Part shown: piece after piece, positions 34,094-47,331 of the stretch | Layout of the letters: every line of letters begins with the position of its first letter | Position numbering within the stretch: position 1 is the first letter of the stretch | Assembly (NCBI GenBank): GCA_946183145.1 | Contig: CAMGZM010000006.1 | Span: 1-64,000, forward strand | DNA from: an uncultured Fretibacterium sp. | GTDB taxonomy: Bacteria > Synergistota > Synergistia > Synergistales > Aminobacteriaceae | DNA: 64,000 nt | Direction of reading: 5' to 3' | Position numbers and translations under genes: made by a program | The notes under the pieces: generated by a model | Seen by the model: only the letters and a program-made list of their open reading frames with translations | The model's database searches: none | Told to the model about the DNA's origin: nothing

Positions 34094-37000
34094 CTAATGC
34101 GTAATGCGTTTGCGTTTTGCCATGAAGATTATTGCGACTGAAGAGAGAACCGCGCCGAATGATTCGCAGCCGCCTCCTCCGCTTGAGCCGCTAACTCCGC
34201 TTTCTGCCTCTGTGTTAATGTCTGTGTTCGTGCCTGTGTTTGTGCCTGTTTCAGTCGTTTGTGATGACGCAGGTTTTCCGGCCATGAACATAGCACCGTA
34301 AATTCTGCCGTCTTTGCCTTCACCGTCAGGGACAATCAACTTTCCGTCTACTATCTGCGGGCCGTTGTACGATGACGCAATGCTTGTTGCTGACGCTGTA
34401 ACGTTCGCAAGATAGGCTGTGAGTTCCGCGCTGAGTCCTTTTCCGCCGTCCGCTGTTGTGAGCTTCAATGCTCCTGCTGACATTGCTTCTGACGCTTTCA
34501 CGCCGCCCGAACCTATTACAGGCCATGACGAATTTACGCCCTTGAAGTCTGTGCGAATCGCTGAGAATACTTCATCAGCAACAGAAGGAGTCAAAGTTTT
34601 TCCGGCCATGTTGTAGCCTAATATGCTCTGCAATTCTGAGCCGCTGAATGTCCACGAGTAAACCAGCGGGAATATTGCGCCTTCATTAAGCCCGGTGAAG
34701 TTTATGTTCACTCCTGCTTTGCCCGATGTGAGCGCGTAACCGTCTGAAGCTGAATATGTCTTTAACGTGTTGAACGTGAGCGAATTGTCCGCAATTGTCG
34801 TAACCTGCGAGGCCGTAACATTACCCCAGATGCTCGCAAAACTTGAGCGGAATGATGACGAGTTTACAGACGATGAATTTACGTCCGCAAGCTGAAGCGA
34901 TATGTCGTACTCCGTCAGCTGCTCAACATAACCCTGCAAGTAATCCATGAGAGTCGGCGATGTGTTGAGATAACTGTACGTGTATTCCGTAACTTTTATC
35001 GGCTGGCTGTCTGATAACTGTGCGCCCGATGAATTGCTCCTCAATGTCTTGACCGTTATTGTTACGTAAGTATTTCCCGGCGTGAAGCTCAATACTGTTA
35101 TGTCGCCCGTATCTTTGTTGATGCTGATGATGTTGGGCTTGTCGCTTGACCATTCTACAGGCTCTTCATTCTCACCATTTCCGCCGAGTGCTGTGCGTCC
35201 GTTCGTGTAGTAGACTTTTGCGATGAGGCTTGCTGTTTGTCCCACGCGCCGCAGATTGTTGGGTATTCCGCTCATCTCAATACGTGAAATCGTGTACGCC
35301 GCTAATGTCTTGTCCACAGAAATTATATTTGTGTCGTCATTGAAACATGCTCCTATGTCAAGCAGTATTTGCGCTGTTGTCGGGTATCTTGTTACGCCGC
35401 GTTCATCAATTTCGGGGAATCTCGTTCGCTGTTCGTAAGGGATAATGTTTGTCGCACGGTCTGCAATAGGCAGTGCAACATCCTCGCTTAACATTAACGT
35501 CATGAGCCTTGAACGTGTTGAAAGTGTGCTGCCCAAATACGGCGGTATATCGCTTCCCAGATCTGAGCGGGCGTTTACGGCTAATATATTTCCGCTGAAG
35601 AATGTTTCTTTTGTCCACGCTGTTGTTGATGGGTACGGTGTTCTGTCCGATGCGTTTCGTGTTACTGAGTAGAAATCTGTTACGCCGCTTCCTGTGCTGT
35701 AGACTCCTATGCGGTTATAGCCTCCTGATGTTACAGTTCCGTCTGACCATACATCCGCTACATTTCCGTCATTGCCGACTAATATTGTGCCGAGAAGTAC
35801 TAGTGTGCTTCCGTCGCCTACGTATATAGCGCCTCCGTTTGCCTGGCATGTGTTGAGGGTGAATGTGCAGCTTGTTACGTTTGTTGTGTCAGCGCAGTGA
35901 ACAGCGAGTCCCGCGCCGCCGGGGTTGCTTTGTGTCGCGCCGTCTATGTGGTTGTCGTAGAATGTGCAGTTTGTTACGGTGATTTCCTCGTGCTGTATTG
36001 GCTGTGCCGCTAAATATGCTCCGCCGCCCTCGCCTGTGTTGCCGCTGTTGAGTACGAGCCTGTTGCCGCTGAATGTGCATCTGCTTAATGAGATGTCATT
36101 TGCTACAACGTATAATCCTCCGCCGTTGCCTGCCGCGCCTGACGTAACATTTTCCTGAAGCATTGATGTTGTCATCGAGAATGTTGCGTAATTATTCGGG
36201 TCGCTGCTGTTCTGGTTGAAGTATATCGCGCCTCCTGAACGCCAGCTTTTGTTCTCGCGGAATAAGCACAGCTGTATGCTCAGTGTACCCTGTGCGTAAA
36301 CTGCTCCGCCGTCAAGTTTTGTGCTGTTGTTGTTCCTGAATGTCGATGACGTTATCACTGACCTGCAATAACCCTGAAGTGATACCGCGCCCCCGTTGCC
36401 TGAAGATGTGCTGTTTGTCGCGAAAAATGAGTTTGTTACGGTAACATTTGAGGCTTCCGCGTATAATGCTCCGCCCCCGTCTACTGCGCTGTTGTCGTTG
36501 AAGGTCGTATCCGTTACTGTCATTTCACCGCCTAATGAATATGCAGCTCCCCCGCCTAATGTCGCAGTGTTGCCTGTAAATATCGACTGAGTGAGAGTGA
36601 GTTCACCGAGCGCGTACAATGCTCCTCCGCCCTGATGATTTCCCGTTCCTGTGCTTGAGTTTGCGCCGTTTGAGCCGAAATCAGAACTTACCGCGACGAT
36701 ATTCATAGCCCAGACCGCGCCGCCTGAGCCTTCAGAAAGCTGATTGCTGACTGATGAATTATTCAGCGTGATTTTTGCGTTGTTCGAGGCCGCTAATCCT
36801 CCGCCCGTTGAAGCTGTGTTCTCTTCGGTCTGAGTGAAGCTCTCAAAAATTATGTCTGATGAATACGAGCATAATCCCCCACCGTAATAAGCCGCTTTGT
36901 TCCCGCTGAAAGTATATTTTCTCGTTGTGCCTATTGTTACGGGTGATGATGATGATCCTGCTATGTATATTCCGCCTCCGCTGCCTGTTGTTGTTGAAAG

Positions 37001-38911
37001 GCTGTCGGATTTCGCTGTCGTATTGCTCTCGAAATATATTGTGCCTTCCGGGAGCTGTGAAGATTCTGCAATCCATAACGCGCCCCCGTTGCCATCATTC
37101 GCCGTATTCGCCCTGAATGTTACTGTCGGCTCAAATGTCATTGTGCTGTAAGACTCGGCGTAAACTGCTCCTCCTGAATAGTTAGCTGTGTTACGGCTGA
37201 ATACTGCTTCACTTTCTCCCGTAATGTTGAGTGCTGTCTGACCTCTTCTTGTTGCCGCGAGATATACAGCCCCGCCATAATTCGCGATGTTGTTGGTGAA
37301 AGAAGCAGCCCCGCTCACAGTTACGGAAGCACCTCCGCCCGCGAGAATTGCGCCGCCTATGCCAGTATTCGCGGCATTCCCGGAAAATTCTGACGCTGAG
37401 CTTGTGATTGTGATTGCTACCCTGTCGCCTGATGCGTAAATTGCGCCCCCGCTGCCCTCAGTCACAGTATTAGCTGTGAAGCTGAGACTGTCGCCCGTGA
37501 GATTCACTCTTGAGCCCGCGCCCGCATAAATCGCGCCGCCGTCATTCGACACAACATTTTCCGCGAAGGTTACGCCTGTTCCGCTTACGTTCACAGTTCC
37601 GGAAGAGATGTATATTGCTCCGCCGTAATCCGCTCTGTTCTCCGTGAAGCCTGACTGCGCTCCCGAAATTGTTGTTGTTCCTCCAGCGATGTATAACGCA
37701 CCGCCGTTTTCCGCAATGTTCGGTGAAGCGTCCGTTAATGTGTTGAATGTTACGTTAGCTCCGACAGTGAGACTTGATGATGAATATATTGCTCCTCCGT
37801 TTGTTGATGTGTTGTTCGTGAAGGAAGTGTTAGCGAGATTGATGCTTCCTCCTGTGAGAGAGATTGCGCCGCCTGAAACTGAAGTATTGCCGCTGAATGA
37901 TGCTCCTGAAATCGTTATTGTGCCGCCAGTTGATGACAAAGCACCGCCGTAATTATCCGAGCCGCAGTTCGTGAAAGTTGCAGACATTGTTACAGTTCCG
38001 CTTGCTGAAGCGAGTCCGCCGCCCCTCTCTGAAACTGTGCATGACGTGAATGAAGTACCCGTAATCGCAAATGTGCCAGTTCCGGCGAAATAGATTCCTC
38101 CGCCATTGCCTGAAGGAGCTACGCATGATGTGAATGAAGAATTTGTTACCGACAAAGCCCCGGAGCCTTCTGCGTAAATTCCGCCGCCGTTCACAGATGT
38201 ATCACACGCCCTGAAAGTACAGCCCGTGAATGTTCCTGAAGCGTCAGACAAAAGCGAAACGCCCCCGCCGCTTTCTGTTGCGTAACAATCCCTGAATGTG
38301 CAGCCCGTGAATGTTGCCGAGCCTCCGTTGACCGTAACGCCTCCGTCTGATCCTGAGCCTGTGAACGTTATCCCGCTGAATGTTACTGTCTGGCCCGCCG
38401 TGATGAAATGCCTTTGTCCTGAACCAAGCGTGAGAATCGCAGGTGTTGCGGTGAATGTGATTGTCGTTATCGTTGAGTATTGCGACAAATCAACCTCGTA
38501 ATCTATTGTGCCTGTAGTGATTGAGACATTAACGGCTGACATTGCTGTGAGTGAAGCGTCATAAGCTATGTCATATTCAGACTCGTCAATATATCCCGTG
38601 TAGTTGTTCTGTATATATTCCTGAGGGTTCAAAGCAAAAGACAGCGCGCCCGATGTGCCATCACCGACAACCTGAAATGTGTAGTTTGTCCCCGAAACTG
38701 CCGGGAATGTTACTACACCTCTTTGTTCTGGCTGAGTCTCGTTGCCTTCCTCGTCATATTGTGCAGGTACATACGGAGTTGTAATTTCAGGATCGGGAAT
38801 AAGCTCCGTGCCTGTAACGTAAAGTGTTGCTGCTGTAGTGTCAGCTCCGAATGACATGGCCGGGGAAAAAACCGCAAGTGTTACGGCCAAAAGCGCAAAA
38901 ATTTTCCTCAA
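34094..38911 (-). CDS. Giant Pmp-like beta-helix surface protein with Synergist-CTERM signal
   Basis: A 1605-residue exported protein. A signal peptide (KIFALLAVTLAVFSPAMSFGA) is followed by a long run (about residues 150-1100) of right-handed beta-helix repeats with GGAIY/GGALY and FxxN/FxxC motifs, such as GGAIYASGD, ENGGALYIAGG and GGGIYFAGTG, like chlamydial polymorphic membrane proteins. A Big-type segment (WSSDKPNIISINKDTGDITV) and an unknown C-terminal domain follow. The last residues, SGSSGGGGC plus a hydrophobic helix and KRKR, match the Synergist-CTERM sorting architecture. The start is TTG 38911: AAGGAGG is 8 nt upstream, and the longer frame would put 23 residues before the signal peptide. 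Likely a surface adhesin or coat protein; no ligand is known. Confidence 0.85.
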   Translation of the reverse strand: MRKIFALLAVTLAVFSPAMSFGADTTAATLYVTGTELIPDPEITTPYVPAQYDEEGNETQPEQRGVVTFPAVSGTNYTFQVVGDGTSGALSFALNPQEYIQNNYTGYIDESEYDIAYDASLTAMSAVNVSITTGTIDYEVDLSQYSTITTITFTATPAILTLGSGQRHFITAGQTVTFSGITFTGSGSDGGVTVNGGSATFTGCTFRDCYATESGGGVSLLSDASGTFTGCTFRACDTSVNGGGIYAEGSGALSVTNSSFTSCVAPSGNGGGIYFAGTGTFAITGTSFTSCTVSERGGGLASASGTVTMSATFTNCGSDNYGGALSSTGGTITISGASFSGNTSVSGGAISLTGGSINLANTSFTNNTSTNGGAIYSSSSLTVGANVTFNTLTDASPNIAENGGALYIAGGTTTISGAQSGFTENRADYGGAIYISSGTVNVSGTGVTFAENVVSNDGGAIYAGAGSRVNLTGDSLSFTANTVTEGSGGAIYASGDRVAITITSSASEFSGNAANTGIGGAILAGGGASVTVSGAASFTNNIANYGGAVYLAATRRGQTALNITGESEAVFSRNTANYSGGAVYAESYSTMTFEPTVTFRANTANDGNGGALWIAESSQLPEGTIYFESNTTAKSDSLSTTTGSGGGIYIAGSSSSPVTIGTTRKYTFSGNKAAYYGGGLCSYSSDIIFESFTQTEENTASTGGGLAASNNAKITLNNSSVSNQLSEGSGGAVWAMNIVAVSSDFGSNGANSSTGTGNHQGGGALYALGELTLTQSIFTGNTATLGGGAAYSLGGEMTVTDTTFNDNSAVDGGGALYAEASNVTVTNSFFATNSTSSGNGGAVSLQGYCRSVITSSTFRNNNSTKLDGGAVYAQGTLSIQLCLFRENKSWRSGGAIYFNQNSSDPNNYATFSMTTSMLQENVTSGAAGNGGGLYVVANDISLSRCTFSGNRLVLNSGNTGEGGGAYLAAQPIQHEEITVTNCTFYDNHIDGATQSNPGGAGLAVHCADTTNVTSCTFTLNTCQANGGAIYVGDGSTLVLLGTILVGNDGNVADVWSDGTVTSGGYNRIGVYSTGSGVTDFYSVTRNASDRTPYPSTTAWTKETFFSGNILAVNARSDLGSDIPPYLGSTLSTRSRLMTLMLSEDVALPIADRATNIIPYEQRTRFPEIDERGVTRYPTTAQILLDIGACFNDDTNIISVDKTLAAYTISRIEMSGIPNNLRRVGQTASLIAKVYYTNGRTALGGNGENEEPVEWSSDKPNIISINKDTGDITVLSFTPGNTYVTITVKTLRSNSSGAQLSDSQPIKVTEYTYSYLNTSPTLMDYLQGYVEQLTEYDISLQLADVNSSSVNSSSFRSSFASIWGNVTASQVTTIADNSLTFNTLKTYSASDGYALTSGKAGVNINFTGLNEGAIFPLVYSWTFSGSELQSILGYNMAGKTLTPSVADEVFSAIRTDFKGVNSSWPVIGSGGVKASEAMSAGALKLTTADGGKGLSAELTAYLANVTASATSIASSYNGPQIVDGKLIVPDGEGKDGRIYGAMFMAGKPASSQTTETGTNTGTNTDINTEAESGVSGSSGGGGCESFGAVLSSVAIIFMAKRKRITH

Positions 38912-38913
38912 CG

Positions 38914-40884
38914 TTAATCCCTCCTTGCACGAATCATAGCTATCAACGACAAAGCGAGAATGCCCGCGATTGATGAGCATCCGCCGCCGCCTGATGAACC
39001 TCCGACTCCCTGATCGCCTGTTTCGTCGTCAATGTCAATGTTTATGTTGGTGTTGCTGTTTGCGTAATTGTCCTGCCATCCTGAAGGAGCGACGAAGAAT
39101 GTCATGTTCCATTTGTTGTCTAATGTTCCGTCCCTGATGACAATATAATTATTCTGCTGTGATACGGAATTATCCGGCACTATGCTTAATTCCGGCCTTA
39201 CACCGTCCCTTGTTCCGTCCATAAGCATAACGATGAAACTTATCGTAAGAAGCCCGCTGTAATTGTCCTGCGTGAGTCTTCCGCGATCCTCGTCAAGAAA
39301 TACTTTCACAAGCTCGTTGTAATATCCCTTTGAGTTAAGCTCCTGAGTCAGATTCCAGACGTTATTGTCGCCCGCACGTAGATACAAATCGTATTTATTC
39401 GCGAACATGTCCTCAATGCGTCCAGTGTTGCGCCAGACTTTGAGCATCTCATTCCACCAGGCATTATCGCCGATTAACGTTACAGGAATGTTGAACGTAA
39501 TATGAAGCGGGAGTATTCCTTCTGAGTCATCGCCTCTAACGCTTGAGGGTATATTCTGGTTGACCGTGAAGTACTGAATGACATCATCAGCTATAACATT
39601 GCGTGAAATTGAGCTTGCAGAAAATATTGTTATCGTAGGAACTGCAACAGTAGCCGCGCCGTTTGTTACCGCTGAAACAGTGCTGTAGAAATTCGTGCTT
39701 GCGAGTCTCGGCTGGAATGCTGTTACCTCGAAAAGATTGAACTGTCCTTCCTGCGCCGGATACCTGTATGTCTCGCCCAAAGTTTTCCCGTAAATTATCC
39801 TGTGATTGAGGCTCAAATCATAGTCGCCGTAATTCGGAGTGTCTACGGGGAAAAGGTGAATGGGAGTCTTGTTCTGCTCGTTGACATTGTAGCGTCTGTT
39901 GTAGACCGTAACAAGTCCGGGTGCAATGTTGCTTTCAGACGCAAGGAGAAATTCACGCGGGATATTCGTTGTTCCCTGAGGGCGGAAAATGTCGAACTTC
40001 CACGCGCTTGGGGGGACTGTACCGCCGGTGCTGTCAGGGTATCTTGCCGCGTAACGGTATGATGTGTTGTTCGCGATTTCTGTTGTCAGGTAATATTCTA
40101 TCCTCGTGTTGTCCGTGTTAAGGTCATCAACTGGAATGAATACCCATTGATTTCCGCCTGTTGTCTTGCTCTGGTTCATTGTCCATGTCGAACGGTCATA
40201 AGCGATAATATTCCCTGAAGGCCCGGTTGAGTCTCTCAGTGCCATTCTCACAACGAGGGGGGCTTGACCGTCTGCCGCTGTACCTGAGTAAACGTTTGAG
40301 ATCACCATCGGGCGCGTTATTGCCTGTGAAGGTGAGTAGGCTGGATTCTGCTGGAACATGAAAGACTGTATCACAGTGTCGTATTTGTTCCTGTCGTTTT
40401 GCCGCGCAATCTGGTAATGATAGTTTTTCCATTCTGACGTGGTATTGTTCGACTGATCCGGCTGTTTAGTGTCAATATACGGTGTCATGTTCTCGTTGAC
40501 GATAGTATTCACTCCTAAATTCGGCGTGCTTACGTCAAAATCAATTGCCTGCGATCGCATTCCCATATCAAATTCTCCCTGGCCTTCTGAGAGAACAAGA
40601 AAGAATGTCTGCAAATTTCTGTCTGAAACTGTATTAACAGAATTTCCGCTTAACACGTTAAGTATCGCCGTGCCTGAAGTGAGAAGATCCGCAGAAATAT
40701 TCACAGGCTCAGAATATGACGCTCCGAATGTGTCATTTGTGTCGTTGATGACCATCCATTGAGAGCTTACACCGCTCGGGCCGGGAAGATCGTCAAACTG
40801 ATAATCCGCGCTGCAAATCCCCGCCGCAAAAACCGTAACCGCAATGACGCAAAACAAAAACGCGGCCTTCCTTAATCTGTACAA
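38914..40884 (-). CDS. Exported protein with Synergist-CTERM signal
   Basis: A 656-residue protein with an N-terminal signal peptide (KAAFLFCVIAVTVFAAGICSA) and the C-terminal GSSGGGGC, hydrophobic helix and RARRD tail. The body is Asn/Thr/Tyr-rich, beta-predicted and not recognised. The start is TTG with AGGAGG 8 nt upstream. It ends 2 nt before the TTG of the giant beta-helix gene, so the pair is surely co-expressed. No repeats are visible, in contrast to its partner. It may be a second surface component or assembly partner; that is inference only. Confidence 0.75.
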   Translation of the reverse strand: MYRLRKAAFLFCVIAVTVFAAGICSADYQFDDLPGPSGVSSQWMVINDTNDTFGASYSEPVNISADLLTSGTAILNVLSGNSVNTVSDRNLQTFFLVLSEGQGEFDMGMRSQAIDFDVSTPNLGVNTIVNENMTPYIDTKQPDQSNNTTSEWKNYHYQIARQNDRNKYDTVIQSFMFQQNPAYSPSQAITRPMVISNVYSGTAADGQAPLVVRMALRDSTGPSGNIIAYDRSTWTMNQSKTTGGNQWVFIPVDDLNTDNTRIEYYLTTEIANNTSYRYAARYPDSTGGTVPPSAWKFDIFRPQGTTNIPREFLLASESNIAPGLVTVYNRRYNVNEQNKTPIHLFPVDTPNYGDYDLSLNHRIIYGKTLGETYRYPAQEGQFNLFEVTAFQPRLASTNFYSTVSAVTNGAATVAVPTITIFSASSISRNVIADDVIQYFTVNQNIPSSVRGDDSEGILPLHITFNIPVTLIGDNAWWNEMLKVWRNTGRIEDMFANKYDLYLRAGDNNVWNLTQELNSKGYYNELVKVFLDEDRGRLTQDNYSGLLTISFIVMLMDGTRDGVRPELSIVPDNSVSQQNNYIVIRDGTLDNKWNMTFFVAPSGWQDNYANSNTNINIDIDDETGDQGVGGSSGGGGCSSIAGILALSLIAMIRARRD

Positions 40885-44261: not shown

Positions 44262-44957
44262 ATGAAAAATTTTACTCACTTAATCATTGCGGGAGTCGGA
44301 CCGGGCGACTTGGGACTCATTACTCTTAAAGCGATTCGCGAAGCTCTATACTCCGATATGATTCTCGTACCGCGCTCAAAGATTCATGAACAGGGACTCG
44401 CTGAGAAAATCATAGCTCATTATTTGCCGTCCCGAAAATTGACTCCGATATTATTTCCCATGACTCGCGATTCGAATCAACGGGACGAAATCATACTCTC
44501 ACAATTAGAGTCAATACGGCGTGAAATTGAGTCGTCTGAAGAAATATTTTTCCCCGTAATCGGAGACTCTGTTCTATATTCGACAGGCGCATACTTGATC
44601 GAGGCGATGAAGAAAATTACTGCGGTTGACGTTCGCTTCATTCCGGGAATTTCGGCTCATTCGTTAGCGAGTTCGTGTGCAAAAAGATTCCTTGCGATGT
44701 CGGACGAAATTTTGACGATAATCCCCGGCACAGCTTCCCCCGAAAAGATTTCAGCGGCCCTCGAACATTCAGACTCGATAGCAATCTACAAGCCTTCAGC
44801 GATTCGGGATATTAAGCGTTATGTTGACCCTGAGAAATTCCGCGTGATTCTGCGTGTTGATTTCGCCGGGATTCCTGAGAGGGAGAAAATTTTTGACGGA
44901 GAGTCCGCGCTTGAAGGCATTGACGAATATTTGTCGGTGATACTCCTGAAGAAATGA
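44262..44957 (+). CDS. cbiL: Precorrin-2 C20-methyltransferase
   Basis: SAM-dependent methylation of (cobalt-)precorrin-2 at C20 in cobalamin ring synthesis. The 231-residue tetrapyrrole methylase begins with HLIIAGVGPGDLGLITLKA, the glycine-rich SAM loop, followed by GDSVLYSTGAYLIEAM and IPGISAHSLASS. No other cob or cbi gene is in the window. Upstream space (about 48 nt to the divergent gene) is too short for a cobalamin riboswitch. No SD precedes the ATG. Its end overlaps the next gene by 4 nt. Confidence 0.85.
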   Translation: MKNFTHLIIAGVGPGDLGLITLKAIREALYSDMILVPRSKIHEQGLAEKIIAHYLPSRKLTPILFPMTRDSNQRDEIILSQLESIRREIESSEEIFFPVIGDSVLYSTGAYLIEAMKKITAVDVRFIPGISAHSLASSCAKRFLAMSDEILTIIPGTASPEKISAALEHSDSIAIYKPSAIRDIKRYVDPEKFRVILRVDFAGIPEREKIFDGESALEGIDEYLSVILLKK

Positions 44958-45838
44958 ATGATTTGCTGAGGGGAGAAATTTATCTTACTGCTGAAATCAT
45001 TACAGGTCTGCTCATTGCTGAAGTAATTTTGCGGCTGAAAATCCCTGACGCAATCATGAAACATTTTGCGCCGAAAAATATCCCTCCTGTAACGGCTCTT
45101 GCTGTAGCGGTTAGCGCGGGATCGTCAAAAGCTGGCGCGGCTGTAATATCATCATCGCTTTCACGCGGGGAAATCAGCGAGGCTTCTGCTTTGTGGTCTG
45201 TCTTGATGCTCCCTTTGCCGTCATATTTGCGCCGGTGGCCGTCAACATTCGCGCTGTCTCTTGGCATGGCCGGAAAAGCCGGGGGGATATTCGCGGTATC
45301 ACTTCTTGCGAGGAGCATATTACGATTCATGATTGCCCTTCACTTTCTGAGACGTGAGAACCGCAACAAGACTTTTCAGACTCATAACGCCGATTCATTC
45401 CCGAAAGCACGAAATTATTTCACCCTTCATTCACTCACAAAAACGCTTCCTATTGCGTGGATATTCTTTGCGCTTGCGTATATTCTTGTGCCGTTTGCTG
45501 ATGGGATTATGCGGGAAATTTTTGCTGACGGTGATACGTTCCTTCCTTTAGCGGGATGGGCTGTATCTGCTGCGAGCATCGGCCATGTGAACGCGGCTTT
45601 GTCGATTGCGGGAGGTGCTATTCATTCGGGAGAATTGAGCGTGAGTCAGGGAGTATTTTCGCTGATATTGGGATCGGGACTCGGAACTGTTACGAGAATT
45701 TTGCGGCAGAACGCGGGATATTACTACGGACTTTTTGACGGACGGACAGCGACTCGAATGCTGATGATGAACTTTGCTACAATAATTCCGTTAATCGTGA
45801 TAAATTTGATTTTTGCGGGATTAGCTTTATCATTATGA
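44954..45838 (+). CDS. Polytopic membrane protein, gate (nucleoside-recognition) like
   Basis: A 294-residue membrane protein with about eight predicted helices in two similar halves. The first half carries AVAVSAGSSKAGAAVISS and PSYLRRWPSTFALSLGMAG, the second AAGWAVSAASIGHVNAAL-type Gly/Ala segments and GLGTVTRILRQNAGYYYGLF. The pattern is like the gate domain of archaeal and bacterial nucleoside-recognition proteins, but the match is by eye only. Overlaps of 4 nt with cbiL and with the GGDEF gene show one operon, hinting at transport linked to corrinoid synthesis or to the signalling gene. Confidence 0.6.
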   Translation: MNDLLRGEIYLTAEIITGLLIAEVILRLKIPDAIMKHFAPKNIPPVTALAVAVSAGSSKAGAAVISSSLSRGEISEASALWSVLMLPLPSYLRRWPSTFALSLGMAGKAGGIFAVSLLARSILRFMIALHFLRRENRNKTFQTHNADSFPKARNYFTLHSLTKTLPIAWIFFALAYILVPFADGIMREIFADGDTFLPLAGWAVSAASIGHVNAALSIAGGAIHSGELSVSQGVFSLILGSGLGTVTRILRQNAGYYYGLFDGRTATRMLMMNFATIIPLIVINLIFAGLALSL

Positions 45839-47331
45839 ACATGAATACCAACACGATAAACATATACGTTACAGGGAAGAATCTTGCGGGAATATTGTCG
45901 TCAGTATCGCCGCCCGCCGGAATGACTTGCAATGTTATAACGCTTGAAGCCGGAATGCACATTAACGCGCAGGCCGTGAATGTATTTGTGCTGAAGAAGA
46001 TTCCTTCACGAAAAATTGACGGAGCAAAATATATTCTCTGCTCAAAGTCTCACACCGAATTAACCGCCGATGAACTTAACATGCTTTATGATTTATGGCC
46101 TGAACCTTTAACGCCCTCTTTGCTGAAATTCTATTACCGAAAACTTTTAGAGAGAATACAATCCGAACAGCTTAACACTTCAGAAGGCATTGAACACCAG
46201 AAACGCATAATCGAAATGGCGAGGCAGGATTACCTTACGGGCCTCGCAACACGCTGGTATTTGCAGGAATATATACGCCGTAATCAGGACGAACAGAACG
46301 TAACGTGTATATATTTAGACCTTGACAACTTCAAGAAAGTGAATGACACATACGGGCATCAGGCGGGGGACAGGGCATTAGCTGCGACGGCTGAAATGAT
46401 GCAGCAGAAATTCTCCGATGGTTTTTGCGCTCGCATGGGCGGTGATGAGTTTATGATTGTGCTTCTGGGACTGCGCGAGGCTTCCGACGTTGAGCGAAAA
46501 GTCAGCGCATTCATGGCCGGGCTTATGGAATATTACGCGGGCACAAAGACAATGCGGGCATTATCCGTAAGCGCGGGTATTGCACAGAAGACTCACGGGG
46601 ACTCAAAGACTATAGACAGGCTGATTCACGAGAGCGACATGGCACTTTACGAGGCGAAAAAGTCCGGGCGCGCCTGCTGCAAAATCTACAGTGCTTCAAT
46701 GGACGAACAGAGAGAGCCGGAAAAAAATCCCAGCGATGAAACAGAGTCAGCGAGAAATTACTACCTTGTAGACTACGAGAATGTGAAAAATCACGGGCTT
46801 AACGGCATACAAGACTTGAAGGGCGACAACGTAATCTGCATATTCTACAGCCGCAACGCTCCGGGGAACTTCACGCTTGACCTTCACCGCCAAATCAGCG
46901 AGGCAAACGCGGAAATAGTGTACTTGAAGGTTGAAGTCGGCACAAAAAACGCGCTTGATTTTCAGCTTGCCTCATACTTGGGTAAAATCATCGCTGAGAA
47001 TCACGGAAGAAAGTGCAATTACTTCATTGTGTCAAACGACCGGGGATATTTGAGCCTTGTACCGTTTTGGCACGAGGGAAATATAGATATTGAGGTTATT
47101 GGGGATTTGTCGGGGGCAAGAATTTTTGTTGACAGGGACGAAATAGCCGCAAAAGTTTTTGAGCTTACGGGAGACCCTGATGACGCGGGTAATATTGCGG
47201 ACATAATCATAAACCATCACACAAGAACAGAAATCAACAGCGCGCTGCAAAAGCATTACAGGAACAACGAGAAATCAACACAAACGTATCACGCAATAAG
47301 ATCACTGATCGAACACAAGCGGGGAAGGTAA
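45835..47331 (+). CDS. GGDEF diguanylate cyclase fused to a PIN/NYN-like nuclease domain
   Basis: A 498-residue soluble protein. Residues 1-115 form an alpha/beta region that looks like a degenerate receiver without an obvious phospho-Asp. Residues 128-285 are a GGDEF domain: DYLTGLATRWYLQEYI, LDLDNFKKVND, an intact GGDEF at 202-206 and ALYEAKKSGR. No RxxD inhibitory site is at the usual distance. Residues 308-425 resemble PIN/NYN-type metal-dependent RNases: YYLVDYENVKNHG (D313), ALDFQLASYLG (D375), FIVSNDRGYLSL (D402). The combination suggests nucleotide synthesis or sensing tied to RNA cleavage. It overlaps the upstream gene by 4 nt and ends at a terminator. Both activities are inferred. 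Confidence 0.8.
   Translation: MNMNTNTINIYVTGKNLAGILSSVSPPAGMTCNVITLEAGMHINAQAVNVFVLKKIPSRKIDGAKYILCSKSHTELTADELNMLYDLWPEPLTPSLLKFYYRKLLERIQSEQLNTSEGIEHQKRIIEMARQDYLTGLATRWYLQEYIRRNQDEQNVTCIYLDLDNFKKVNDTYGHQAGDRALAATAEMMQQKFSDGFCARMGGDEFMIVLLGLREASDVERKVSAFMAGLMEYYAGTKTMRALSVSAGIAQKTHGDSKTIDRLIHESDMALYEAKKSGRACCKIYSASMDEQREPEKNPSDETESARNYYLVDYENVKNHGLNGIQDLKGDNVICIFYSRNAPGNFTLDLHRQISEANAEIVYLKVEVGTKNALDFQLASYLGKIIAENHGRKCNYFIVSNDRGYLSLVPFWHEGNIDIEVIGDLSGARIFVDRDEIAAKVFELTGDPDDAGNIADIIINHHTRTEINSALQKHYRNNEKSTQTYHAIRSLIEHKRGR

What the first reader, a model, noticed from the sequence alone, without database searches (positions are those of the whole stretch)
45835..47331. Predicted diguanylate cyclase fused to a PIN/NYN-like RNase domain
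An intact GGDEF (202-206) is followed on the same chain by a domain with the PIN/NYN acidic pattern: VDYENV with D313, ALDFQL with D375 and SNDRG with D402. A degenerate receiver-like region precedes both. I know of no described protein that couples a cyclic dinucleotide synthase directly to an RNase-like domain. It could cleave RNA under control of the GGDEF product or use GGDEF as a nucleotide sensor. The gene overlaps a membrane protein and cbiL, so the input may be related to corrinoid or nucleoside status.
Basis: partly seen in the sequence, partly recalled or inferred. Interest (0 to 1): 0.8.

Follow-up and report, generated by a model that had tools for sequence, protein, structure and literature searches.

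The report
c-di-GMP synthase fused to predicted RNase
In a group of gut Synergistaceae bacteria from grazing mammals, an enzyme that makes the signal molecule c-di-GMP is joined on one chain to a predicted RNA-cutting domain of the PIN/NYN family, an architecture I found in no other bacteria searched, suggesting that a signal and its RNA-cleaving output may be built into one protein.

Summary
Confirmed. Window 45835-47331 (+) encodes 498 aa: a degenerate receiver-like domain, an intact GGDEF (PF00990, E 1e-32), a disordered linker, a PIN7-family PIN/NYN domain (PF18475, 88.5 bits against a cut-off of 34) and a helical tail. The cyclase's GTP/metal residues and the PIN acidic residues (D313, D375, D402, plus E315/N316) are invariant in relatives; the inhibitory I-site is absent. 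The fusion is real: 12 genomes of the genus carry it (one with an internal stop); in 4 more the same two genes lie in tandem at the same site; most others have only the cyclase. It was not seen elsewhere among 188 Synergistota, about 1,090 sampled Bacillota genomes, or the 80 closest PIN7 loci of GTDB. PIN7 probably came from rumen Bacillota. In the window's lineage the PIN module alone looks exchanged: DNA identity to a close relative falls from 84% to 65% over exactly that module and recovers downstream. No PilZ protein or c-di-GMP-I riboswitch was found in the genus, so a built-in RNase output is attractive. Coupling, substrate and RNase activity are untested. Caveat: the PIN model matched no solved PIN structure, but did match predicted viral NYN proteins.

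The parts
45835..47331 (+). Whole fusion gene: pseudo-receiver, GGDEF, PIN7, helical tail (498 aa)
   Evidence: orthologous fusions in 11 other genomes of the genus, one with an internal stop
45835..46164 (+). Receiver-like domain (residues 1-110) lacking the phospho-acceptor Asp; probably a non-phosphorylatable input or dimerisation module
   Evidence: Foldseek match to WspR/PleD across REC and GGDEF; family alignment
46222..46671 (+). GGDEF diguanylate cyclase domain (residues 130-279), active-site residues present, I-site RxxD absent
   Evidence: PF00990 E 9.9e-33; invariant D162, K167, N170, D179, G202-F206, K275
46669..46746 (+). Disordered, fast-evolving linker (residues 279-304)
   Evidence: pLDDT below 50; length varies among orthologues; pN/pS 0.46-0.90 over residues 286-306
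46753..47094 (+). PIN7 (PIN/NYN-like) predicted nuclease domain (residues 307-420)
   Evidence: PF18475 88.5 bits; invariant D313, E315, N316, D375, D402; model pLDDT 87
47095..47328 (+). C-terminal four-helix tail (residues 421-498), also present in stand-alone PIN7 proteins
44954..45838 (+). Upstream membrane protein of unknown family, stop/start overlap of 4 nt with the fusion gene; conserved neighbour in most of the genus
44262..44957 (+). cbiL-like precorrin-2 C20-methyltransferase gene, first gene of the likely operon
   Evidence: PF00590 E 3e-27; TIGR01467 148.8 bits, under its 163.25 cut-off

Best explanation
This is a bifunctional signalling protein. Shown by sequence: a REC-like domain that cannot be phosphorylated in the usual way, a GGDEF domain with the residues needed to make c-di-GMP and no I-site feedback, and, on a flexible tether, a PIN7 domain with the conserved acidic residues of a metal-dependent RNase. 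Inferred: the pseudo-receiver/GGDEF part dimerises in response to a signal or partner, makes c-di-GMP, and the same dimerisation (or the locally made c-di-GMP) brings the two PIN domains into a cutting state, so that an RNA-cleavage output is switched together with the cyclase. The PIN7 gene was acquired next to an existing cyclase gene, worked with it from the tandem position, was then fused, and its module was later exchanged between lineages, perhaps changing RNA specificity.
For: Domain hits, invariant catalytic residues, WspR-like fold of the N-terminal part. In 17 of 19 PIN7-bearing genomes of the genus the PIN7 gene lies at the cyclase locus: 12 fused, 4 in tandem, 1 separated by an insert. 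Fused PIN7s form one clade, 99/95. Purifying selection on both domains, relaxed in the linker. Two EAL proteins in the window genome and in most of the genus, but no PilZ (0 of 16) and no c-di-GMP-I riboswitch (0 of 23). The NYN RNase of a type III CRISPR locus is an active Mn2+-dependent ssRNA nuclease (PMC11346440).
Against: No activity has been measured. The linker is disordered and pTM is 0.39, so no allosteric contact is predicted. About half of the genus keeps the cyclase without PIN7, and three genomes keep PIN7 away from it or separated, so neither strictly needs the other. PIN7 elsewhere has no consistent GGDEF neighbour. The PIN model matched no solved PIN structure at E below 1e-3.
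Confidence: 0.42

Rival explanations
1. Two independent enzymes joined by read-through of tandem genes. Cyclase and RNase keep separate jobs; the fusion only fixes stoichiometry or co-expression.
For: Tandem unfused pairs at the same locus (G017, G032, G035, G094); disordered linker; cyclase often present without PIN7.
Against: The fusion has been kept through much divergence in 12 species, and PIN7 stays physically linked to this one cyclase in 17 of 19 genomes.
Confidence: 0.33
2. The PIN7 domain acts on short RNA made in c-di-GMP turnover (pGpG) or on c-di-GMP itself, so the protein limits its own signal.
For: Nuclease next to a cyclase without an I-site in genomes with few c-di-GMP genes. 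NrnA shows that dedicated short-RNA nucleases serve bacteria lacking Orn (PMC9757072, abstract seen).
Against: Stand-alone PIN7 is common where no cyclase is adjacent; exchange of the PIN module would be odd for a fixed substrate. pGpG nucleases of the genus were not surveyed.
Confidence: 0.08
3. The unit is a conflict (defence or toxin-like) system in which the cyclase part senses stress and the exchangeable PIN domain is the effector, by analogy with Cas10-type signalling and PIN/NYN effectors.
For: Precise exchange of the PIN module in the window lineage; patchy presence; probable acquisition from Bacillota.
Against: No PADLOC family match except a weak CARF hit (E 0.018); housekeeping-like neighbours (cbiL, Na+/H+ exchanger); GGDEF residues are those of a c-di-GMP synthase; only one clear exchange seen.
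Confidence: 0.12

Closest known systems
WspR/PleD-type REC-GGDEF diguanylate cyclases
   Same: REC-GGDEF order and fold, c-di-GMP-type active site
   Different: Receiver cannot be phosphorylated canonically, no I-site, extra C-terminal PIN7 domain
Stand-alone PIN7 (PF18475) proteins of gut Bacillota
   Same: Same roughly 190-aa PIN7 plus helical tail, 36-48% identity
   Different: Not fused to GGDEF; longer versions carry disordered C-terminal extensions instead
NYN/LabA-like RNases (PF01936), including the CRISPR-associated NYN
   Same: Acidic motif pattern; sub-threshold NYN hit here, above cut-off in the G006 orthologue (28.7 bits); hhalign P 8.4e-6 over 52 columns; fold match to predicted viral NYN proteins
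   Different: Distinct Pfam family; no CRISPR context; fused to a cyclase
Type III CRISPR Cas10 signalling
   Same: A GGDEF-type palm making cyclic nucleotides that switch on separate RNases (established knowledge)
   Different: Here a canonical GGDEF predicted to make c-di-GMP, RNase on the same chain, no CRISPR neighbours seen

Membership tests
GGDEF diguanylate cyclase | Profile match with intact GGDEF motif | tested here: met
   PF00990 113.6 bits, cut-off 23.8; GGDEF invariant in 18 orthologues
GGDEF diguanylate cyclase | Metal and guanine-binding residues (PleD D327, K332, N335, D344 equivalents) | tested here: met
   D162, K167, N170, D179 invariant; PleD numbering from memory
GGDEF diguanylate cyclase | Makes c-di-GMP | not testable with these tools
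   needs an enzyme assay
PleD/WspR response regulator | Phospho-acceptor Asp in the receiver | tested here: not met
   position is K/G or similar in the family; filed only as receiver-like
PIN7 (PF18475) | Score above gathering cut-off | tested here: met
   88.5 bits against 34; 10 of 10 fusions in A1 match
PIN/NYN superfamily | Conserved acidic residues on three motifs | tested here: met
   D6, D68, D95 (plus E8, N9) invariant in 59 sequences
PIN/NYN superfamily | PIN-like fold | tested here: inconclusive
   alternating strand/helix Rossmann-like order in the model; no solved structure at E below 1e-3; viral NYN/dsRNA-binding and LabA-like models among top matches
PIN/NYN superfamily | Metal-dependent RNase activity | not testable with these tools
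   needs an assay

The most novel reading that the evidence does not exclude
A one-chain second-messenger RNase: c-di-GMP synthesis (or cyclase assembly) directly gates a PIN/NYN nuclease carried on the same polypeptide, with an exchangeable nuclease module setting the RNA target, in a genus where no PilZ receptor or c-di-GMP-I riboswitch was found.
Probability: 0.33. Interest if true: 0.85.

Novelty: new variant of a known kind. Interest (0 to 1): 0.62.

Why it matters
c-di-GMP outputs are usually separate receptors. A cyclase carrying its own predicted RNase would tie second-messenger synthesis directly to RNA decay, and the genus offers stand-alone, tandem, fused and module-swapped forms for testing how such coupling arises.

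Tried and rejected
Assembly or annotation artefact: rejected, since 11 other genomes carry the fusion. General GGDEF-PIN7 association: not found; only 2 of 68 non-Synergistaceae loci had a clear GGDEF gene within 4 kb (L054, L081), which I judge near chance. GGDEF fusions among long PIN7 frames elsewhere (G471 and Negativicutes, about 340-530 aa): extensions are disordered or helical, no GGDEF. Two separate fusion origins (G023 apart in the GGDEF tree): a single clade is not rejected (AU p 0.23). PIN-tree conflict by AU test alone: G000, G030 and G022 as one PIN clade is not rejected (p 0.26), so module exchange rests on the DNA-identity and synonymous-distance break. The intended Bacteroidia survey returned the same genome set as the Clostridia survey, so Bacteroidia remain unsurveyed. 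Plasmids: one stand-alone PIN7; phages: none. Rfam on the locus: none.

Full report
Observation. The ORF at 45835-47331 (+) reads 498 aa. Pfam finds GGDEF at 130-279 (E 9.9e-33) and PIN7 (PF18475) at 311-414 (E 5.1e-25, 88.5 bits, cut-off 34); NYN is sub-threshold.

Anatomy. AlphaFold (18 orthologues) gives a receiver-like fold at 1-110, helices 94-149, GGDEF, a disordered stretch 279-304, the PIN domain and four tail helices; pTM is 0.39, so domain placement is not predicted. Foldseek matches WspR and PleD across REC and GGDEF. The receiver lacks its phospho-acceptor Asp in the whole family, and the I-site RxxD is absent (F193, G196 instead), whereas the GTP and metal residues are invariant (PleD mapping from memory). 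The Asp at position 179 suggests c-di-GMP rather than a hybrid dinucleotide (inference from known Hypr GGDEF enzymes).

PIN identity. The PIN7 model (59 sequences, pLDDT 87) has the alternating strand/helix order expected, with the acidic residues after strands 1 and 4 and at the start of helix 3. It found no solved structure at E below 1e-3, which is a real caveat. Predicted viral proteins with NYN, dsRNA-binding and LabA-like annotation were among the top matches, probability up to 1.00. The NYN profile scores 28.7 bits (cut-off 24.2) on the G006 orthologue, and hhalign against NYN proteins of the order aligns the GKNAxD and SxDxxF motifs (P 8.4e-6, probability 83%). I take the domain as PIN/NYN superfamily.

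Distribution. GTDB loci of the same genus are titled Synergistaceae/Synergistales MAGs from goat, sheep, red deer and reindeer. Of 19 genomes of the genus with PIN7, 12 are fused (including G002 with one internal stop), 4 have tandem genes at the same site (G017, G032, G035, G094), one (G027) has an insert between them, and two (G013, G025) have PIN7 elsewhere. Many others have only the cyclase. Outside the genus, 26 of the Synergistota genomes searched have PIN7 in frames too short for a fusion or without GGDEF. PIN7 over cut-off was seen in 16 of 391 genomes of the Clostridia set, 2 of 399 of the Trichococcus class and 23 of 300 of the Veillonellaceae class; the longest frames that were fetched had disordered or helical extensions and no GGDEF. 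The 80 best loci of GTDB showed fusions only in Synergistaceae. More distant relatives (517 in all) were not all inspected.

Evolution. In the PIN7 tree the genus is nested in Bacillota, next to Lachnospiraceae (98/94), apart from other Synergistota; fused PIN7s form one clade (99/95) and unfused ones another (99/84). In the cyclase tree 11 fusions form a clade (99/99) and G023 falls outside, but one clade is not rejected. This fits acquisition of PIN7 next to the cyclase, one fusion, and many losses.

Module exchange. Between G000 (window) and G022, DNA identity is 72-85% through cbiL, membrane gene, REC and GGDEF, 62-67% across the PIN module and tail, and 79-91% in the downstream gene; G000 against G030 shows no such drop. 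Synonymous distance doubles at the same boundary (REC 0.58, GGDEF 1.01, PIN 2.1), so this looks like replacement rather than selection on protein. G000 and G030 PIN modules group with G023 (99/94), although the AU test does not exclude the alternative. G022 keeps a PIN like that of other fusions (77% DNA identity to G002 and G010).

Context. The genus has few cyclases, usually two EAL proteins, no PilZ in 16 genomes and no c-di-GMP-I riboswitch in 23. Other receptors (c-di-GMP-II riboswitch, MshEN, degenerate EAL) were not tested. The locus is cbiL, a membrane protein and the cyclase, overlapping by 4 nt; downstream is often a Na+/H+ exchanger but a TerB_N gene on the opposite strand in the window. 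PIN7 elsewhere has no recurring partner.

Literature. Full-text searches for GGDEF with NYN domain, PIN domain or nuclease terms returned no description of such a fusion among open papers; subscription papers, and one PIN classification paper that I tried to open, were not readable.

Conclusion. The architecture is real, conserved and, as far as tested, restricted to one genus. Functional coupling is likely but unproven; simple co-expression of two enzymes is the main rival.

Noticed in passing
L027:1498-2748 (-), genome G009: The cbiL-like methyltransferase is fused directly to the GGDEF domain (417 aa), without the membrane gene and receiver-like domain between them: a second, different fusion involving this cyclase.
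   Followed up: partly
L004, genome G002: The fusion carries one in-frame TAA inside the PIN7 domain; pseudogene or assembly error.
   Followed up: partly
window 44954-45838 (+): Polytopic-looking membrane protein with no Pfam or NCBIfam match, conserved between cbiL and the cyclase in most of the genus.
   Followed up: no
L055, L062, L069, L144, L188-L196: Stand-alone PIN7 proteins of Clostridia and Negativicutes with long, often charged and disordered C-terminal extensions.
   Followed up: partly
L112:3885-4778: Viral-contig PIN7-like protein in which the C-terminal helical unit appears twice, suggesting that the tail is an independent domain.
   Followed up: no
L054:4591-5601: Membrane GGDEF gene directly downstream of a stand-alone PIN7 gene in an Erysipelotrichaceae MAG; may be chance.
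   Followed up: no
window 34094-38980 (-): Large secreted-looking repeat protein (1628 aa, beta-helix-like repeats, C-terminal SSGGGGC-type sorting signal); a neighbour at 38914-40884 (-) ends in a similar signal.
   Followed up: no
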